From: Botrytis cinerea B05.10 | Taxonomy: Eukaryota; Ascomycota; Leotiomycetes; Helotiales; Sclerotiniaceae | Direction: 5' to 3' | Assembly (NCBI RefSeq): GCF_000143535.2 | Contig: NC_037323.1 | Location: 1,674,001-1,738,000 of the forward strand | Length of the DNA: 64,000 nucleotides | In this document: in pieces, positions 31,085 through 38,710 of the stretch | Numbering within the stretch: position 1 is the stretch's first letter | Layout of the letters: each line of letters starts with the position of its first letter | Notes under the pieces: model-generated | The model's input: only the letters and a program-made list of their open reading frames with translations | The model's database searches: none | Told to the model about the DNA's origin: nothing | Translations under genes and position numbers: made by a program

Positions 31085-31089
31085 ATGGA

Positions 31090-31272
31090 TGTTAGAATGA
31101 ATAATAGTAATGAATCAACTAGTATATTGTGGCACCAAGACTTTTCATTGCTTTTCTATAACTATGCAAATTATACAATTTATACGTGTGCGGGCCCCAT
31201 TCGGCACGCAGTAGACCCGAGAGGTCCACTGTCACGTGCCTAATTGAGCCGGTCACGTTTTGTCCCGTAACA
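31090..31272 (-). repeat. 3' LTR of the gypsy element (element orientation)
   Basis: 183 bp, TGTTA...TAACA ends, identical by eye to the copy at 38304-38486. Confidence 0.97.
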
Positions 31273-31286
31273 GAGCCCCTCTCTTT
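31273..31286 (-). other. Polypurine tract next to the 3' LTR
   Basis: On the minus strand AAAGAGAGGGG (31276-31286) followed by CTC leads directly into the LTR. This is the usual site for plus-strand DNA priming in LTR elements. Confidence 0.7.
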
Positions 31287-31489
31287 ACACTTCGCGTCCC
31301 GAGAAGTGTTTGCTTCCTTCCGTATTGTTTACTCGGAATGTGGGTCGCGTCGTCGCGTCGCTGCATGCCCGACCCTGCGCCGCATTCCAAAAGCAATTCC
31401 AATCTTGTTTAGGCATTACAAACAATAAACAAGCAAACGGCGGCATTCTTACACGCCTCACCGCCTTACCGGCAGATCACCGATAGTTC

Positions 31490-31496
31490 TATAAGG
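31490..31496 (+). promoter_or_regulatory. Possible TATA box of the opposite-strand passenger gene
   Basis: TATAAGG lies about 70 bases upstream of the ATG at 31563, inside the element and outside the LTR, so the passenger gene may have its own promoter. Confidence 0.4.
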
Positions 31497-31562
31497 GGGG
31501 TCTTCTTGCCTCTGATATATCTCCCACAATCAGATTATTCCCCCTTATTTACTCATACGAAG

Positions 31563-33045
31563 ATGGCTGCACTGCAACCCATCGCTCCGGCTGCTATCGC
31601 TGATCGGTCCGCAGCGGCCCCTTCCGCGTTAGTTATCCCTACTTGCCTTCGATGTTCTAAGCGAATTGCCGTCTCTTCTAACGACGAATTTTGCCATTTT
31701 GATAAAGGTCCTGCTGCTAAATGTAGTTATTGTCGCAAACAAAAGAAAGTCTGCCTCCCGATACCTCCTCGCTTTGTTCCCGACGTGAACCTCTTATATC
31801 AGACTCATGCCTTTTGGTGCCTTACTCCGGATAATAGCCAAGAGGATGAGGACGCCTCCGAGGTGGTGATTCGCCGGTGTAATCGATACGTCAAGGCAGT
31901 GGAGGCTTTCCTTCGAAAAGAGGTTAAACAAGGGGGGACTCACAAACCGCAGTCCGCAGAGGAATTGACTCTTCTTCTGGTGTCCAAATTGAGTAGAATT
32001 GGCGATCTTATGGAGCGCATTGTGGATTCGTATCGATTCGTTGTCGGTTGCCCTGCTCTTGCCCCTTGGTGCTGTTGATAGCTGATTTGATGGTTCTTAG
32101 AATAACCTGCCTGCCTTGGACGTCGCCGCCGCAGCTCCTACTGCACCATTAATCGCCGCCTTAAACTCGGACGAAGAAGGGGAGTTCATGGCTCCGGTTA
32201 TACACCCTCGCGCTGTGCGCGCTGTCGCCGACGCACTGCAGGGTGTCCAAGCTCCTCCGGGGCCCCCAGGTGGTAACCAGGGCCTGAATATGGTAGCTGG
32301 TTCCCTAGGTCGCCGTCATGCTTCTGCTTCATCGAGCCGGACGGGCCCCGCTGTCTTCACGACGGCTCAGCAAGGCCTCCGGAAAGGTTCTGCGAAGTTG
32401 AAGAGGAGTGTAATCGTGGATCCCAATGAATCCGAAGAGTCTGCTCCTGAAGAGGATGATGTGTCGGATCAACCTCATCAGACCACCGGTGCCCCGCGTC
32501 ACCCCTTGGATGAGAGTGTACCGGCTTTATTGTTTGGAAGCTTGGGTAGAAAGAACGCTCCTCCTGCTACGCCTCGTCGTTCTCGGTCCGATAAGCTCGC
32601 GACTAGATCCGCCATTCCCCTTTCCGCTTCTAAGTCGTCGCAGCTTGCCTCTCGCAACACACCGACACCCCGCTCTCATCCCGTAGGCTCTCTTAAATCC
32701 CGAAAGAGGGCTCCCAGCACTGTTCAACAAGTCTATATTGGTGAGTCTGATAGTCAAGCAGATTCGCCCCAAAGGCTTCGCTCTGAGAATTCTGATGTGG
32801 AGCGGGTTTCCAAGAGGCAACGGGTTGCCGCTGGTTTTCCGACAGGAGCTCGCCCTGTCAGCGAGATTCGCGAGAACGAGGAGGAAGGAGTCGGTGATCA
32901 AGATGAGATCAGTGGGGGGGGTGAGGTTGATCAGATCGGGCTCGCGAGTCCCGGGGGATATGCCAGCGATGTAGGTTCTGTCCTTCTTGGCGATCGAGAT
33001 ATTGCAGCTGACCTCCTGGATCAGGCAGATGAATTAGGGAACTGA
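31563..33045 (+). CDS. Opposite-strand Cys-rich passenger gene inside the retrotransposon
   Basis: Two exons, 31563 to about 32039 and 32101-33045, with a 61-nt intron whose donor (GTTGTC) is weak, give about 473 residues. The N-terminal region has a cysteine/histidine pattern, CLRCSKR ... EFCHF ... KCSYCRKQKKVC (about 28-66), suggesting a zinc-binding module reminiscent of but not equal to a Zn2Cys6 cluster. A helical segment follows (VEAFLRKEVKQGG ... LTLLLVSKLSRIGDLMERI). The second exon is Ser/Pro/Arg-rich with acidic patches and basic runs (LKSRKRAP, SKRQRVAAG) that could be nuclear signals. It is not gag, pol or env. It points toward pol, the two ending 170 bases apart, so their transcripts could overlap tail to tail. 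From memory, Botrytis gypsy elements carry a comparable inverted extra gene (called brownie transposon protein); whether this is its homologue needs a search. Function unknown. Confidence 0.75.
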
Positions 33046-33215
33046 TTTCGACCTTCCAGAGTTCTCTTTGCGTGATGGGTCACTTGGGTTTGGTTGTCGG
33101 TATGCTGTGGGTTCGGAGGAGTTGTCCTTTCTGGTTTCTTTGTTGGATAGTCCTTTTTGGGTAGCTTGGTGTGATGCATGCGTTCTGGGTGTGGGTCTCG
33201 TGAGGTCTTTTTGTA

Positions 33216-36200
33216 TCAAGTATTTTTAAGCTTTTTTCTTGTTCTCTTCTTTTTCTGTATTGGTAATGCTTCTTCTTTATGATATTCTTCCATCGCTGCT
33301 TTCGCATTTTCTAGATTGTAGGGTGCTTCCCACGTGTCTTCCGCCGGTTGGTAGCCCTTCCATCGCACCAGGTATTGCACACCTCTGCCTCTTTTTCTAT
33401 GTGCTAAAATCCTTTCCACCTCATGCTCTATGTGATCGTCAATTTCTTCTGGCGGCGGCGGGTCGGCGGTACCCTGTCGTTCGTGCCATGGTTCGAGTAA
33501 GGAGACGTGGAATACATTGTGGATCTTGTAGGTGGGCGGTAATCTAAGTTCGTATGCTTGCCCGCTGGTTTTTATACCCGTCACGACAAAGGGGCCTATA
33601 AATCGATCGGAGAATTTTTTCTTAGGTCGCAGTTGTTTAATGTTCTTTGTGCTTAGCATCACCTTGTCCCCGATGCTATATCGCTGTGGTGACCCCTTCG
33701 TAGTGTTCTTGTTTTTCTGATTGGTTGCCGATTTCCAGAATTCTTTCAGCTTTTCTCTTTCTTTCTCTAAAGCGTCGATGCGCTCGCGTGCTGCCGGCGC
33801 CCTTCCCTCTAAATCGGCGTCCTCGCCGATATAATGGAATGTGGGTTGGAACCCATACATAGCCTGGAATGGGCTTGTATTGGTTGTACTGTGCCATGTC
33901 GCGTTATATGTGAATTCAGCAAGGGGCAATAGCGATGCCCAGTCGTCTTGCCTATAGTTGGTGTAGCAACTTATATAGTGAATCAAATTTTGGTTTTGTC
34001 GTTCGGTTTGACCGTCGGTCTGCGGGTGGAACGCCGTCGACAGCTTACGACGGATTCGCAAGTAAAACATTAGGCTACTCCAAAATTTACTGACGAATTG
34101 CGGTCCCCTATCGGAGACTATGCCCTCTGGCACACCAAAGTCTTTAAATACTGTGCTGACCATAGTGTCAGCTAATTCAGGAGACGATATCGTCTTGTTG
34201 ACGGCGATATATCGGGCTAGCTTCGTGAACCTGTCGACTACTACTAGAATAGAATCGTATACGTGTTTTCCGTGTTTCGAAGGAGGTAAATCTGTAATAA
34301 AATCCATAGTTATCTCTTTCCAGGGTCCTTTTGGAATAGGGAGGGTCTGTAACTCGCCGTGTGGCTTATGTCTTTTGATAGCGGTTCGCTGGCATACCGC
34401 ACATGTTTTGACATGTTGTTTGACGTCTTTTCTCATTGAAGGCCAATAATATTTAGACTTCAGTATTTCCAATGTTTTAGCGACACCCCAATGACCTCCA
34501 ATAGGGTCATCGTGATGCGTTTCTAAGATTTCTGCTCTGAGAGCGCTATCTGGCGGTACGTACGCGCTCCCCTTGTGTCTAAGGAGCCCGTCGGCGCCCA
34601 CCTGCCACGGTGAGGCGTCTCCGGCGGAACGTAATCTTTGTCTTAGGTACTCTTTATTCTTTATAAAATCGTCTTCTTTCTGAAGCCGCAATAAAGCTTT
34701 TCCCATCGACTCCGATATAGGTTCGAATGCCGTTTCGTCGGATGCGAAAACACTGGCAATCCGACGTGGTATCGACTGTTTGCAACCAGTTTTTACCAGT
34801 GAAACTAACTGTCCACGTAATGGCAAGCTATACCCTTCCCTTTGCAAGCGACTAATAGCAATACGCAGGGGTTCCGTTTTCACGGTGGATTCGTAAAATA
34901 AACTCGCGATAACTGCGGTACTTTTTAATTTATTCTGGAGTGTGGGTAGCATATCATTGATACCCTCCGTGTCGGTAGCGTAGTCGGGGCGGCGCGATGG
35001 CCCGTCGGCTGGATTCAGTTTCCCTGCCCTGTACACTATTTCGAAGTCGTAGGCTGCTAGTACTTCCGCCCATCTAGCTTGTCTGCCATTGAGGGTCTTT
35101 TTCACCATAAAATGTTGTAAGCTGTTATGGTCCGATTTCACCACGATGGTGTGTCGACTACCTATCAAGTAATGGCGCCATTGCATGAATGCAGTGTATA
35201 TTGCTAGTAATTCCTGATCGTGAGTGAAGTATCGTTGTTCTGCAGGGTTCAGCTTTCTCGAGTAGAAAGCGACGGGGTGCCACCGTTGTGTCGGTGCTTC
35301 TGCAGTCCCTTCTTCGAATAGTTGCGATAGGATGCATCCTAGAGCAAACACCGACGAGTCGGTTTCGACCATGATGCGGAGCGATGGTTCGAAGTGCTTG
35401 AGTATCGGTGCCGTGGTGAATGCTTTCTTTAGTGCCTCAAATGCATCTTGGGCCTCCTTTGTCCATATAAACTCCCCTACCATTTTACCTTTCTTTGTTC
35501 CCTTCATAAGGGCGGTCATCCCGTGGGCTACCGTCGAATAGGTCCTGATAAACCGTCGATAGAAGTTCGCGAAGCCCAGGAACACCTGTAGCTCCCTAAG
35601 GTTTGTAGGTGTTGGCCATTCTGTAATAGTTTGAATGCGGCTGGATTCCATCGTCACTCCCGCTCCCGAGACGACGAATCCTAGGAATTCAACCTCATGG
35701 GTGTAAAAGACACATTTTTTCAGTTTTGCGAACAGCTTGTATTCTATAAGGCGTTCGAGGACCCTGCGGACATCCCGCGTGTGGCTTTCTCTATCCTCAG
35801 AGTAAATCAGGATATCATCTAGGTACACTACGCATATGGTGTCTGTTAAGCCTGACAGTGCTTGATTGATGTATGTTTGGAACGTTGCTGGAGCATTGGT
35901 TAGGCCGAATGGCATAACTAAGTATTCGAATTGTTTGTACCGCGTGCGGAACGCCGTCTTCCATTCGTCGCCTTCCTTGATACGAATATGGTGGTAGGTA
36001 TCTCGCAGGTCCAATTTAGTGAAGACGATACCTTGTCGAAGTCGGTTTAAGGACTCGCTGATTAGGGGTAGCGGGGTTCGATCCTTTTTGGTTATCCTAT
36101 TTAGACCCCAATAGTCGACACAAAGCCGATAGCCTCTCCCCTTTTTGGGAACAAATATGATTGGCGTTCCTGTTGAACTAATGGATCTTCTTATCCATCC

Positions 36201-37007
36201 CTTTTTTTGATATTCTATTAAGTATTCCCTTAATACTATTGATTCCTTTTTAGATAAAGAATAGATTGATTCCTAAGGAGGTTTCGAATCGGCTTCGAGA
36301 TTAATGCAATGCTTCATTGAGTGGTGTTCTGGTAGAGTACTGCTTTCTTCCTCGGAAAAGGCTTATTGGTATTCTTGGTATTCTTCGGGGATATTTAGTG
36401 TGGAGAGCGTGAGTACCCGGCGGTATCTGTTGTCTTTATGGTAATGGGGCTGGATCTCTGGTAGTATAATATATACATGGACGCCCTTTTTCACTTTGCT
36501 ATAGAGTTCGCTTGCAGAAATCATTTCGAGGTCGTTAAGAGAAGGGCGATAATAAAGAGACGTCGATTTCCAGTCGATATCTGGGTTTACCGTTTGTAGT
36601 CAGGGTAATCCAAATATAGTATCGATTTTGGGTAAGTCTAGTACAGCAGTAGTAAACTCGTGGGTGAAGGTTCTCTTCTCTTCCTTTTGATTTTTTACTT
36701 TGATGGGGAACTGATGGTTACTATACGATGGCATCGTGGTACTGTTCGCAGATACTAAAGCTGTTCCTTTCTTAATAGGCAGCCAGTTCCATTCGATACA
36801 CTTGGATTGTTGGATGATGTTGGCTTGTGCTCCTGAGTCGATAAGGCATCGAAGCGCTATTGGCTTATCTTTTGGTTGGAATATTGCTATAATGGTAAAG
36901 GTAGTACGTCCTTCTATTTGGGGACCCAGCGTCAGTGGGACGCTCAGAATAACAGCTGGGTCTAAGCGTTTCCCTGTCGGGAAGGCTGTGACATAGTTCC
37001 TGGGCAC
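33216..37007 (-). pseudogene. pol: Gypsy pol polyprotein, interrupted by three in-frame stops
   Basis: Minus strand, one continuous frame from about 37007 to 33216, broken by TGA at 36600-36602, TAA at 36363-36365 and TAG at 36273-36275. The protease is before the first stop (LIDSGAQANII, the D-S/T-G-A site). RT is after the third stop, with YLDD in VVYLDDILIYS. RNase H, integrase (HHCC zinc region ending KTCAVCQRT; DDE residues in TMDFITDLP, VSDRGPQF and HPQTDGQTERQN) and a C-terminal chromodomain (VERILAHRKRGRG ... YLVRWKGYQPAEDTWE) follow; the chromodomain marks the chromovirus lineage and is known to guide insertion into marked chromatin. The 932-codon block from 36014 to 33216 is open. 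The first stop sits where an LPWL-type Trp is expected. Gag and pol are in different frames and overlap around 36962-37007, so expression would need a frameshift. As it stands, no full Pol could be made without readthrough. Confidence 0.93.
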
Positions 37008-38233
37008 TCTCTGGATCCGTGACTTCCTTTACAGTGTTGACATACAACAGGGTTTCGGCAGTTGGAAGCGTAATGCCCCCTTTGTTGACACCTATAGCAG
37101 GTAATGTTCTTTATGCGGTCCGCATACGGTATCGCAGCGGGTTTGATATCGACCAACTCATTTTTTTGAGTCTTTTCTTGAATTGATTCCGAAGGTCTTG
37201 CAGCGATATCTGTTTGTTGCCCGGCTTCGAAACGGGCTCGCTTCGGTGGGTATCGTGAATTTTGGGGTGACTGGACCCGCTTGCGGGGCCCTTGTGATTC
37301 GTCGACGTCTTGCCTATGATAAAGCTTATCTACGTTTTCCAGTCTGCAGGCTTGTTTTATTAGTTCGCCCCTGGATTCCGGTTGTTGTAGAGACTCCGAT
37401 ATTCTCTTAGCTATATGCGGGCGTAGTCCTGCGAGGAGCCTCTCTCTTCGAATGCTATCCGCCTCCAGCTCGATGTCCTCCTCTAGGCTCTCCAAATAGC
37501 TTACAAACGCGTTTACTGATTGCCCTGGTTGTTGTTTCGCATGAATGATTCGCTGGATCGCTTGTCGCTGTCGATTCCCCTTGTCCATAATGGAGTCGTA
37601 CATATATTCCTTGAAATCGAGCCAGCTTAGGCCGGTATTGGCTGACTCGCTCTCGTATCGACGCCATACCGATAGAGGCTGCTTCTCAAAGTATTGGATA
37701 ACATGGTCGATCTTCTTCTCATCTGTAGGGAAGTGGTATCCATCATCGCTTCGAAACATGATCTCTGCCTGGAAGAAGAAGTCCTTTGCCTTCCCAATAT
37801 TCTCGCCTGCATATTTCTCCAGTCTTTGTAGTTTTGGGGGTTTCCCCTGATTGGATGCGGTAACCTGGCGGACCGATAGTGGTGGGGCTGCGACGCTGTC
37901 ATCATTGACCGGGGGGAGAGTATATAAGTTGCGCTCCATAGCCCTTTCATAAGCCTGCTTTACTCTCTCCATTTCCTTCATCATTTTGTTGAACGTCTCT
38001 TCTTGAGTTAAGCCGTCTACAGTGTCGACTCGTCGCCGTGCCGTCGCTTGAGCATCGGCAATCATTTCTTGGAGGCTTTGATTGTCTCCACTGATAGGTC
38101 GTTGTTGTTCCGTCGCTTGGCTTTCGTTACCATCATTTTGAAGAAACCCTTCGGCACCTCCTCCTGATTGGCTTGGGGTTGTGCTGGGGAATTCTCCGCC
38201 ATCTCTTCCGGGTGTTCTTCTCGTGGAAACCAT
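36962..38233 (-). CDS. gag: Gypsy Gag with zinc knuckles
   Basis: Minus strand, 423 residues, intact. A central retrotransposon Gag region (about 130-290, for example FFFQAEIMFRSDDGYHF and the W-R-R-Y and WLDFKEYM stretches) precedes a basic linker and a CCHC zinc knuckle, CYRCQQRGHYASNC (C-x2-C-x4-H-x4-C). A second Cys/His cluster, CQHCKGSHGSREC, has C-x2-C-x3-H-x4-C spacing. Gag forms the particle and packages the element RNA. The start at 38233 lies 71 bases inside the 5' LTR boundary, a usual leader length for short fungal gypsy elements. The last 46 or so bases overlap pol in another frame. Confidence 0.93.
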   Translation of the reverse strand: MVSTRRTPGRDGGEFPSTTPSQSGGGAEGFLQNDGNESQATEQQRPISGDNQSLQEMIADAQATARRRVDTVDGLTQEETFNKMMKEMERVKQAYERAMERNLYTLPPVNDDSVAAPPLSVRQVTASNQGKPPKLQRLEKYAGENIGKAKDFFFQAEIMFRSDDGYHFPTDEKKIDHVIQYFEKQPLSVWRRYESESANTGLSWLDFKEYMYDSIMDKGNRQRQAIQRIIHAKQQPGQSVNAFVSYLESLEEDIELEADSIRRERLLAGLRPHIAKRISESLQQPESRGELIKQACRLENVDKLYHRQDVDESQGPRKRVQSPQNSRYPPKRARFEAGQQTDIAARPSESIQEKTQKNELVDIKPAAIPYADRIKNITCYRCQQRGHYASNCRNPVVCQHCKGSHGSRECPGTMSQPSRQGNA

Positions 38234-38291
38234 AGTGATATCGACGGTGATTCGCTGCTTAGACTAGTTGACGGGTTACCTCTTTTTGGAG

Positions 38292-38300
38292 AATGAAAAG
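38292..38300 (-). other. Possible self-priming primer-binding site
   Basis: Three bases inside the 5' LTR, the minus strand reads CTTTTCATT. This is complementary to AATGAAAAG in the LTR itself (38355-38363), near the predicted RNA 5' end. No TGG-starting tRNA-type binding site is present here. Confidence 0.35.
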
Positions 38301-38303
38301 AAT

Positions 38304-38486
38304 TGTTAGAATGAATAATAGTAATGAATCAACTAGTATATTGTGGCACCAAGACTTTTCATTGCTTTTCTATAACTATGCAAATTATACAATTTATACG
38401 TGTGCGGGCCCCATTCGGCACGCAGTAGACCCGAGAGGTCCACTGTCACGTGCCTAATTGAGCCGGTCACGTTTTGTCCCGTAACA
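38304..38486 (-). repeat. 5' LTR of the gypsy element (element orientation)
   Basis: 183 bp, same sequence as the left copy. On the minus strand it contains TATAAAT at 38392-38398, the likely TATA box driving gag-pol RNA. Confidence 0.97.
38392..38398 (-). promoter_or_regulatory. LTR TATA box
   Basis: TATAAAT on the minus strand, LTR position 89-95. It would place the RNA start roughly at LTR position 115-130. Confidence 0.5.
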
Positions 38487-38710
38487 ATGGAAGTATAAAA
38501 GTAAGAAGTTTTTCGATTTAGAGAATGGAGATTGTATTTATTTATTTATTTATATATATATATATATATTCTTGATGAATTCGTAGAAGCAAATCATGTC
38601 GATTTATACTCATGTATTATATAATTATAAGTAATTATAAGTAATATATAAAACTTTCTATTAATTTAAGTTTAGTCTTTTTTTTTTTTTTTTTTTCTCA
38701 ATCGAGTAAG

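What the first reader, a model, noticed from the sequence alone, without database searches (positions are those of the whole stretch)
31563..33045. Opposite-strand Cys-rich gene carried inside a gypsy retrotransposon
Seen: within the LTR bounds, a two-exon frame of about 473 codons runs against gag-pol and ends 170 bases from the end of pol. It is not any standard retroelement protein. Its Cys/His cluster and basic patches suggest a nucleic-acid or nuclear role. A spliced gene in this orientation cannot be retained as spliced by its own element, since the intron would survive in the antisense genomic RNA. Known, from memory: Botrytis gypsy elements are reported to carry an inverted extra gene and to be sources of small RNAs. 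Inference: this could be a selfish-element accessory factor, or a source of overlapping antisense RNA that feeds silencing.
Basis: partly seen in the sequence, partly recalled or inferred. Interest (0 to 1): 0.85.

Follow-up and report, generated by a model that had tools for sequence, protein, structure and literature searches.

The report
Extra antisense gene in fungal retrotransposon
A grey-mould fungus retrotransposon carries an extra intact gene on its opposite strand; it is not the known one (brtn), and comparison with brtn suggests, without proving it, that such genes encode DNA-binding switches for the element's own promoter.

Summary
The gene is real. In a 7.4-kb Ty3/gypsy chromovirus (31090-38486, gag-pol on the minus strand), a two-exon plus-strand frame (31563-32042, 32101-33045; 474 aa) lies between pol and the 3' LTR. 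Exon 1 is found at 16 loci and is open at two; nine of 13 broken copies aligned differ from the window by C>T/G>A (plus 0-3 other transitions) and no transversion, as RIP would leave. It is not the published brtn, the 191-aa antisense ORF of Boty, another subfamily. The only homologs found are in B. cinerea.

Six N-terminal cysteines resemble a zinc cluster with atypical spacing. BRTN of Boty has canonical Zn2Cys6 spacing and a confident model resembling LAC9. Six Boty subfamilies share 96-98% of gag-pol, yet the zinc-cluster half of BRTN is only 25-74% identical, and each allele travels with its own array just upstream of the LTR TATA box (28 of 29 copies; only six independent alleles).

Best reading: these genes encode DNA-binding regulators of their own element. 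For the window gene this is analogy: its LTR shows no significant array and nothing shows expression.

The parts
31085..31089 (.). target-site duplication ATGGA (left)
31090..31272 (-). 3' LTR (183 bp, TG...CA), identical to the 5' LTR
31287..31309 (.). imperfect 10-bp dyad between LTR and antisense gene; weak (23 of 400 shuffles as good)
31490..31495 (+). TATA-like box (TCTATAAGG) 73 bp upstream of the ATG; candidate antisense promoter, inferred
   Evidence: sequence; TATAA kept in all 15 rows
31563..32042 (+). exon 1 of the antisense gene (160 codons)
31644..31754 (+). six-cysteine cluster, residues 28-64, CX2CX12CX9CX2CX6C (zinc-cluster-like)
   Evidence: 3 of 3 models of other strains
32101..33045 (+). 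exon 2, 314 codons plus stop; tail with basic patches and an acidic end
32695..32709 (+). basic patch KSRKR, nuclear-localisation-like (by eye)
32914..32921 (+). run of 8 G; the three models of other strains differ from the window from about here
33216..36014 (-). pol ORF: RT (partial), RNase H, integrase, chromodomain
36015..36961 (-). probable protease / N-terminal RT stretch (weak RVP match in copy L019), interrupted by nonsense codons in this copy
36962..38233 (-). gag ORF (423 aa) with CCHC knuckle
38304..38486 (-). 5' LTR
38487..38491 (.). target-site duplication ATGGA (right)

Best explanation
The frame is a genuine spliced gene of the retrotransposon, transcribed against gag-pol from an internal promoter beside the 3' LTR. 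It encodes a probably nuclear protein with an N-terminal zinc-cluster-like domain, a helical stretch and a long, probably disordered tail. It most likely binds DNA of its own element and regulates its transcription or silencing, as BRTN probably does in Boty. Shown: element anatomy, open frame in two copies, Cys cluster, same slot as brtn, BRTN's Zn2Cys6 spacing and predicted fold, and its coupling to U3 arrays. Inferred: splicing in vivo, expression, nuclear location, DNA binding, action on its own LTR, and that the window protein works like BRTN.
For: Open frame beyond chance (0 of 500 shuffles); open at 2 of 16 loci and broken in most aligned others by RIP-type changes. In both open copies the protease/RT region is disrupted while the antisense gene is intact. 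The Cys motif arises in 20 of 200000 shuffles of exon 1 (pattern chosen after seeing it). hhalign to the BRTN profile aligns all six Cys; 0 of 200 free and 1 of 100 Cys-fixed shuffles score as high. BRTN: six Cys conserved in at least 90% of 47 sequences; Zn_clus is the commonest Pfam match, 17 of 47 at E up to 0.5, best 8.7e-4; AlphaFold pLDDT 87-96 by blocks over the cluster; LAC9 1cld aligned over 33 residues at 1.7 A, and 7 of 8 rows shown are Zn2Cys6 entries. BRTN zinc-cluster allele and U3 array allele agree in 28 of 29 copies; five of six arrays are rich in direct repeats. A BRTN-like transcript is reported in a Monilinia transcriptome (PMC5987419, passages).
Confidence: 0.45

Rival explanations
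1. The antisense transcript, not the protein, matters: it pairs with gag-pol RNA, giving double-stranded RNA that feeds silencing.
For: Convergent arrangement; small RNAs from other BcGypsy subfamilies are reported (PMC8365987, passages); a review raises this for plant antisense ORFs (PMC7264820, passages).
Against: A 474-aa frame kept open in both GC-rich copies and, RIP-type changes apart, in most aligned others is not needed for this. BRTN shows protein-level conservation of six Cys and a coil across Leotiomycetes.
Confidence: 0.15
2. A nucleic-acid chaperone or packaging protein (nucleocapsid-like) acting on element RNA or cDNA rather than a transcription regulator.
For: Cys/His cluster with basic residues; tail with basic patches.
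Against: Gag already has a CCHC knuckle. The cluster resembles BRTN's zinc cluster more than shuffles do.
Confidence: 0.15
3. A captured host gene or fragment carried as a passenger, without function for the element.
For: No clear relative in other retrotransposon families; homologs found only in B. cinerea.
Against: No copy outside the element in this genome at E up to 1: all 16 loci are copies of the element. Intact while pro/pol of the same two copies is disrupted. Same slot as brtn in Boty.
Confidence: 0.12
4. Two separate unspliced ORFs (31563-32078 and a downstream ORF in 32116-33045) rather than one spliced gene.
For: The donor GTCGGT is atypical; no RNA evidence here.
Against: Three of 3 predicted models of other strains splice there; 58 nt, a TTAG acceptor and a branch-like GCTGAT (by eye) fit a fungal intron.
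Confidence: 0.1

Closest known systems
BRTN / brtn of Boty (BcGypsy1), Zhao et al. 2011 (paper not held; known through citing papers)
   Same: Antisense gene between pol and the 3' LTR of a Botrytis gypsy chromovirus; N-terminal six-Cys cluster.
   Different: No convincing sequence homology; 474 versus 191 aa; intron; separated from pol by 170 bp whereas brtn overlaps pol's end; other gag-pol backbone; no BRTN coil motif; no significant U3 array.
Fungal Zn(II)2Cys6 binuclear cluster regulators (LAC9, HAP1, GAL4)
   Same: BRTN has canonical spacing, a similar predicted fold and a following long helix; the window protein has six Cys in the same order.
   Different: Window spacing CX2CX12CX9CX2CX6C is not canonical; no Pfam hit; fold not determined.
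VANC anti-silencing proteins of Arabidopsis VANDAL elements (PMC5735166 abstract; PMC10398659 passages)
   Same: Concept: an element-encoded, sequence-specific protein whose targets are family-specific tandem repeats in the element's own non-coding DNA, diverging together.
   Different: VANDAL elements of plants, unrelated proteins, shown by experiment; here LTR retrotransposons, only inferred, and the window element shows no array.
HTLV-1 HBZ (recalled)
   Same: Antisense, spliced gene on the 3' LTR side encoding a nuclear regulator.
   Different: bZIP, retrovirus of people; no homology claimed; resemblance of arrangement only.
U3-hypervariable subfamilies: Tnt1 (PMC1838419 passages) and crapaud of Podospora (PMC10787394 passages)
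   Same: Variation concentrated in U3 (in crapaud upstream of TATA) with a conserved rest, as in Boty.
   Different: No element-encoded partner gene appeared in the passages read; in crapaud little association between LTR and internal region is reported.
Plant antisense additional ORFs (Grande, RIRE2, Retand; PMC7264820 passages)
   Same: Same slot and orientation; nuclear location reported for Grande's.
   Different: Different proteins and hosts; no zinc cluster mentioned in the passages read.

Membership tests
BRTN (Boty antisense gene) | sequence homology to BRTN | tested here: inconclusive
   BLASTP E 0.027 at best; hhalign E 0.0021 with probability 13%; above 200 of 200 free and 99 of 100 Cys-fixed shuffles; no BRTN among the hits of either search with this protein
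BRTN (Boty antisense gene) | antisense, between pol and 3' LTR | tested here: met
BRTN (Boty antisense gene) | Boty/BcGypsy1 backbone | tested here: not met
   about 52% identical to Boty pol over the RT/RNase H part; LTR 183 versus 483-578 bp
BRTN (Boty antisense gene) | conserved coil with AMAKILRLR-type motif | tested here: not met
   motif conserved in A2, absent by eye from the 474-aa sequence
Zn(II)2Cys6 cluster (window protein) | CX2CX6CX5-12CX2CX6-8C (consensus recalled) | tested here: not met
   CX2CX12CX9CX2CX6C; no Pfam Zn_clus match
Zn(II)2Cys6 cluster (window protein) | two-zinc fold | tested here: inconclusive
   model pLDDT 44
Zn(II)2Cys6 cluster (BRTN) | canonical Cys spacing | tested here: met
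Zn(II)2Cys6 cluster (BRTN) | fold | tested here: inconclusive
VANC-like self-targeting regulator (window element) | family-specific repeat array in own non-coding DNA | tested here: not met
   U3 upstream of TATA: direct and inverted 6-mer repeats within shuffles; other non-coding parts only searched for dyads
VANC-like self-targeting regulator (Boty) | family-specific repeat array in own non-coding DNA | tested here: met
   direct 6-mer repeats above shuffles in arrays A, C, D, E, F; B only by inverted repeats, in which several control segments are also rich
VANC-like self-targeting regulator (Boty and window) | sequence-specific binding and loss of silencing marks | not testable with these tools
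   needs binding and chromatin experiments

The most novel reading that the evidence does not exclude
Fungal gypsy elements carry, on their antisense strand, a DNA-binding regulator that recognises an operator array in the element's own promoter. Regulator and operator are exchanged as a matched cassette between elements with nearly identical gag-pol, so that each subfamily controls only itself. The window gene would be a second, longer, spliced version of such a regulator in another subfamily.
Probability: 0.35. Interest if true: 0.85.

Novelty: new variant of a known kind. Interest (0 to 1): 0.66.

Why it matters
Antisense extra genes occur in plant and fungal LTR retrotransposons and are reviewed as being without a known function (PMC7264820, passages). 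A predicted zinc-cluster fold for BRTN, plus subfamily-specific arrays at the promoter of the same elements, turns that question into a simple binding test. If confirmed, LTR retrotransposons would have a self-recognition system like the VANC system of plant VANDAL elements, and hypervariable U3 regions would be explained by a matched protein. The window gene would show that this is not confined to Boty.

Tried and rejected
Rejected: that this is the published brtn. Rejected: a host gene copy outside the element (all 16 exon-1 loci at E up to 1 are copies of the element; 14 of the 15 others align into or next to the LTR, L005 only from base 339). Led nowhere: Pfam on the window protein; PDB sequence search with its alignment (no match up to E 5); AlphaFold of exon 1; related loci in viral contigs for BRTN and for exon 1 (no relative confirmed); a second homolog search limited to the Cys region (the same three proteins); selection on the window gene (too few non-RIP differences); dyads in the window U3 (212 of 2000 shuffles as good) and in the LTR-gene gap (23 of 400). 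An early test of BRTN N-terminal identity against whole-LTR identity gave rho 0.07; only the array part shows a relation, and its Mantel test is not below 5% (r 0.62, 46 of 720 permutations). For structure, Foldseek gave no significant hit; VIA re-aligned 22 chains only. In the PDB sequence search with the BRTN profile 5 of 6 matches at E up to 1 were Zn2Cys6 chains, none significant, and a seryl-tRNA synthetase scored as well as GAL4 (E 0.11 each).

Not in print, as far as searches show (listings; open-licence library only; Zhao et al. 2011 not held; supplementary Figure S1 of PMC8365987, which shows additional ORFs, not seen): BRTN as a zinc cluster, or its coupling to U3 arrays.

Full report
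Setting. The window is G000:C14:1674001-1738000 of a 42.63-Mb, 18-contig genome. All three homologs found of the gene are from Botrytis cinerea; that the assembly is strain B05.10 is from memory. The element spans 31090-38486, with identical 183-bp LTRs and a 5-bp duplication. Gag (36962-38233) and pol (33216-36014) lie on the minus strand; pol carries RNase H, integrase and a chromodomain.

The gene. The plus-strand frame is at the stated place. A 314-codon stop-free run was seen in 0 of 500 dinucleotide shuffles of the region. A TATA-like box lies at 31490. After about residue 432 the three other-strain models differ from the window or end, at or near a run of 8 G (32914-32921), so the C-terminus is uncertain.

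Copies. Exon 1 is found at 16 loci of the genome (17 matches, two in one copy) and is open in two. Exon 2 gave 18 matches, two open, the rest with stops. These searches give lower bounds. I aligned 14 other copies (L002-L015; L016-L018 left out) with the window over 2127 bases. The other open copy (L002, L019) differs at 6 sites. Of 13 broken copies, nine have 542-809 C>T/G>A changes, 0-3 reverse transitions and no transversion; L005, L013, L014 and L015 show 99, 27, 10 and 17 transversions. L005 aligned by BLAST only from base 339, and most of L014's non-RIP changes sit at its LTR edge, so those two are inflated; L013 and L015 share 13 non-RIP changes and look like an older lineage. The family is thus nearly clonal and was broken mainly by RIP-like mutation, most likely after insertion. 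Mutation rates varied little between CA, CC, CG and CT in the three copies examined, 0.44-0.77, CT lowest in two. Between the window and the other open copy, 69 of 81 substitutions fall in pro/pol, 4 in gag and 3 in the antisense gene. The protease/RT part is disrupted in both: by nonsense codons in the window copy, by a change of frame in the other.

Not brtn. In Boty (L028) the antisense ORF is 191 aa. A relative 58% identical to it carries the name Putative BRTN, and one of this genome's own alleles (B) is identical to that record over its 191 residues. Boty's LTRs are 483-578 bp and its pol is about 52% identical to the window's over the RT/RNase H part. The two antisense proteins show no clear homology. 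Two searches with the window protein or its other-strain relative in 5.8 billion proteins gave the same three proteins, all B. cinerea; the method reaches only relatives that share short exact words.

What the protein looks like. Eight Cys lie within the first 106 residues and none in the remaining 368. The six-Cys pattern recurred in 20 of 200000 shuffles of exon 1 (the pattern was set after seeing it). Against a BRTN profile all six Cys align; the score beats 200 of 200 free shuffles and 99 of 100 shuffles with Cys fixed, although hhalign's own probability is 13%. The fold could not be modelled.

A matched pair in Boty. Six Boty subfamilies share 96-98% gag-pol identity (dS 0.06-0.20). Their BRTN N-terminal halves are 25-74% identical, with synonymous sites also highly diverged (pS 0.56-0.81). 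For subfamilies B, D, E and F the DNA reads: end of pol 98-100%, zinc-cluster half of brtn 36-65%, LTR start 97-99%, array upstream of TATA 34-83%, rest of LTR 96-99%; A and C also differ at the LTR start. So two variable islands sit in near-identical DNA. The U3 island is a subfamily-specific repeat array: A, C, D, E and F exceed shuffles in direct 6-mer repeats (at most 5 of 2000 shuffles as rich), while 0 of 12 control segments elsewhere in the LTRs do; B exceeds shuffles only in inverted 6-mers, and several control segments do so too. Of 32 Boty loci examined, 29 had an open BRTN and a 3' array, three had no open BRTN and were not counted; in 28 of 29 allele and array agree (array classes were set by eye), and the exception pairs allele F with array D, the two most similar arrays. 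Copies within a subfamily are clonal, so only six alleles are independent; the Mantel test over them gives 46 of 720 permutations. The two closest BRTN pairs (B-C, D-F) are the two with the most similar arrays. Allele F's zinc-cluster half is 87% identical to a Monilinia fructigena protein and 25-57% to the other B. cinerea alleles, so at least this allele is shared across genera; for allele B the nearest is its sister allele C.

Mechanism. I propose that BRTN binds the array in its own U3 and sets sense transcription or blocks silencing, and that the window gene does the same job for its element with a more diverged domain. The first half rests on predicted structure and coupling; the second is analogy, and the window U3 has no significant array. 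The closest working parallel is VANC with its family-specific tandem repeats (PMC5735166 abstract; PMC10398659 passages). U3 hypervariability alone is known in Tnt1 (PMC1838419 passages) and in the fungal element crapaud (PMC10787394 passages). A BRTN-like transcript is reported from Monilinia (PMC5987419 passages); none is known to me for the window gene.

Verdict. The gene is a distinct variant of a known kind of accessory gene; the wider pattern that it led to is the more interesting result and is directly testable.

Noticed in passing
L028, L030, L031, L033, L034, L035 (Boty copies): brtn is a hypervariable cassette inside otherwise near-identical elements, coupled to a repeat array directly upstream of the LTR TATA box.
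   Followed up: yes
P0029 versus Boty allele F (L035): The zinc-cluster half of allele F is closer to a Monilinia fructigena protein (87%) than to any of the five other alleles of its own genome (25-57%).
   Followed up: partly
L028:5512-5639: The end of brtn overlaps the end of pol on the opposite strand; this tail is 81-100% identical among the six alleles, possibly because of pol.
   Followed up: partly
L003, L008, L012: RIP-like C>T changes depend only weakly on the next base (CA, CC, CG, CT all 0.44-0.77), unlike classical CA-biased RIP.
   Followed up: no
window 33216-36961 versus L019: 53 of 81 substitutions in the whole element are A in the window and G in the other copy on the sense strand; 69 of the 81 lie in pro/pol.
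   Followed up: no
window 38260-38303 and the LTR: No tRNA-like primer site was recognised by eye; a 9-nt stretch after the 5' LTR is complementary to the LTR (AATGAAAAG), as in self-priming elements such as Tf1 (recalled); 80 of 5000 shuffles match as well.
   Followed up: partly
G000:C14:262000-286500: The other open copy (L019) lies beside a RIPped copy of the same family and near a Boty copy.
   Followed up: no
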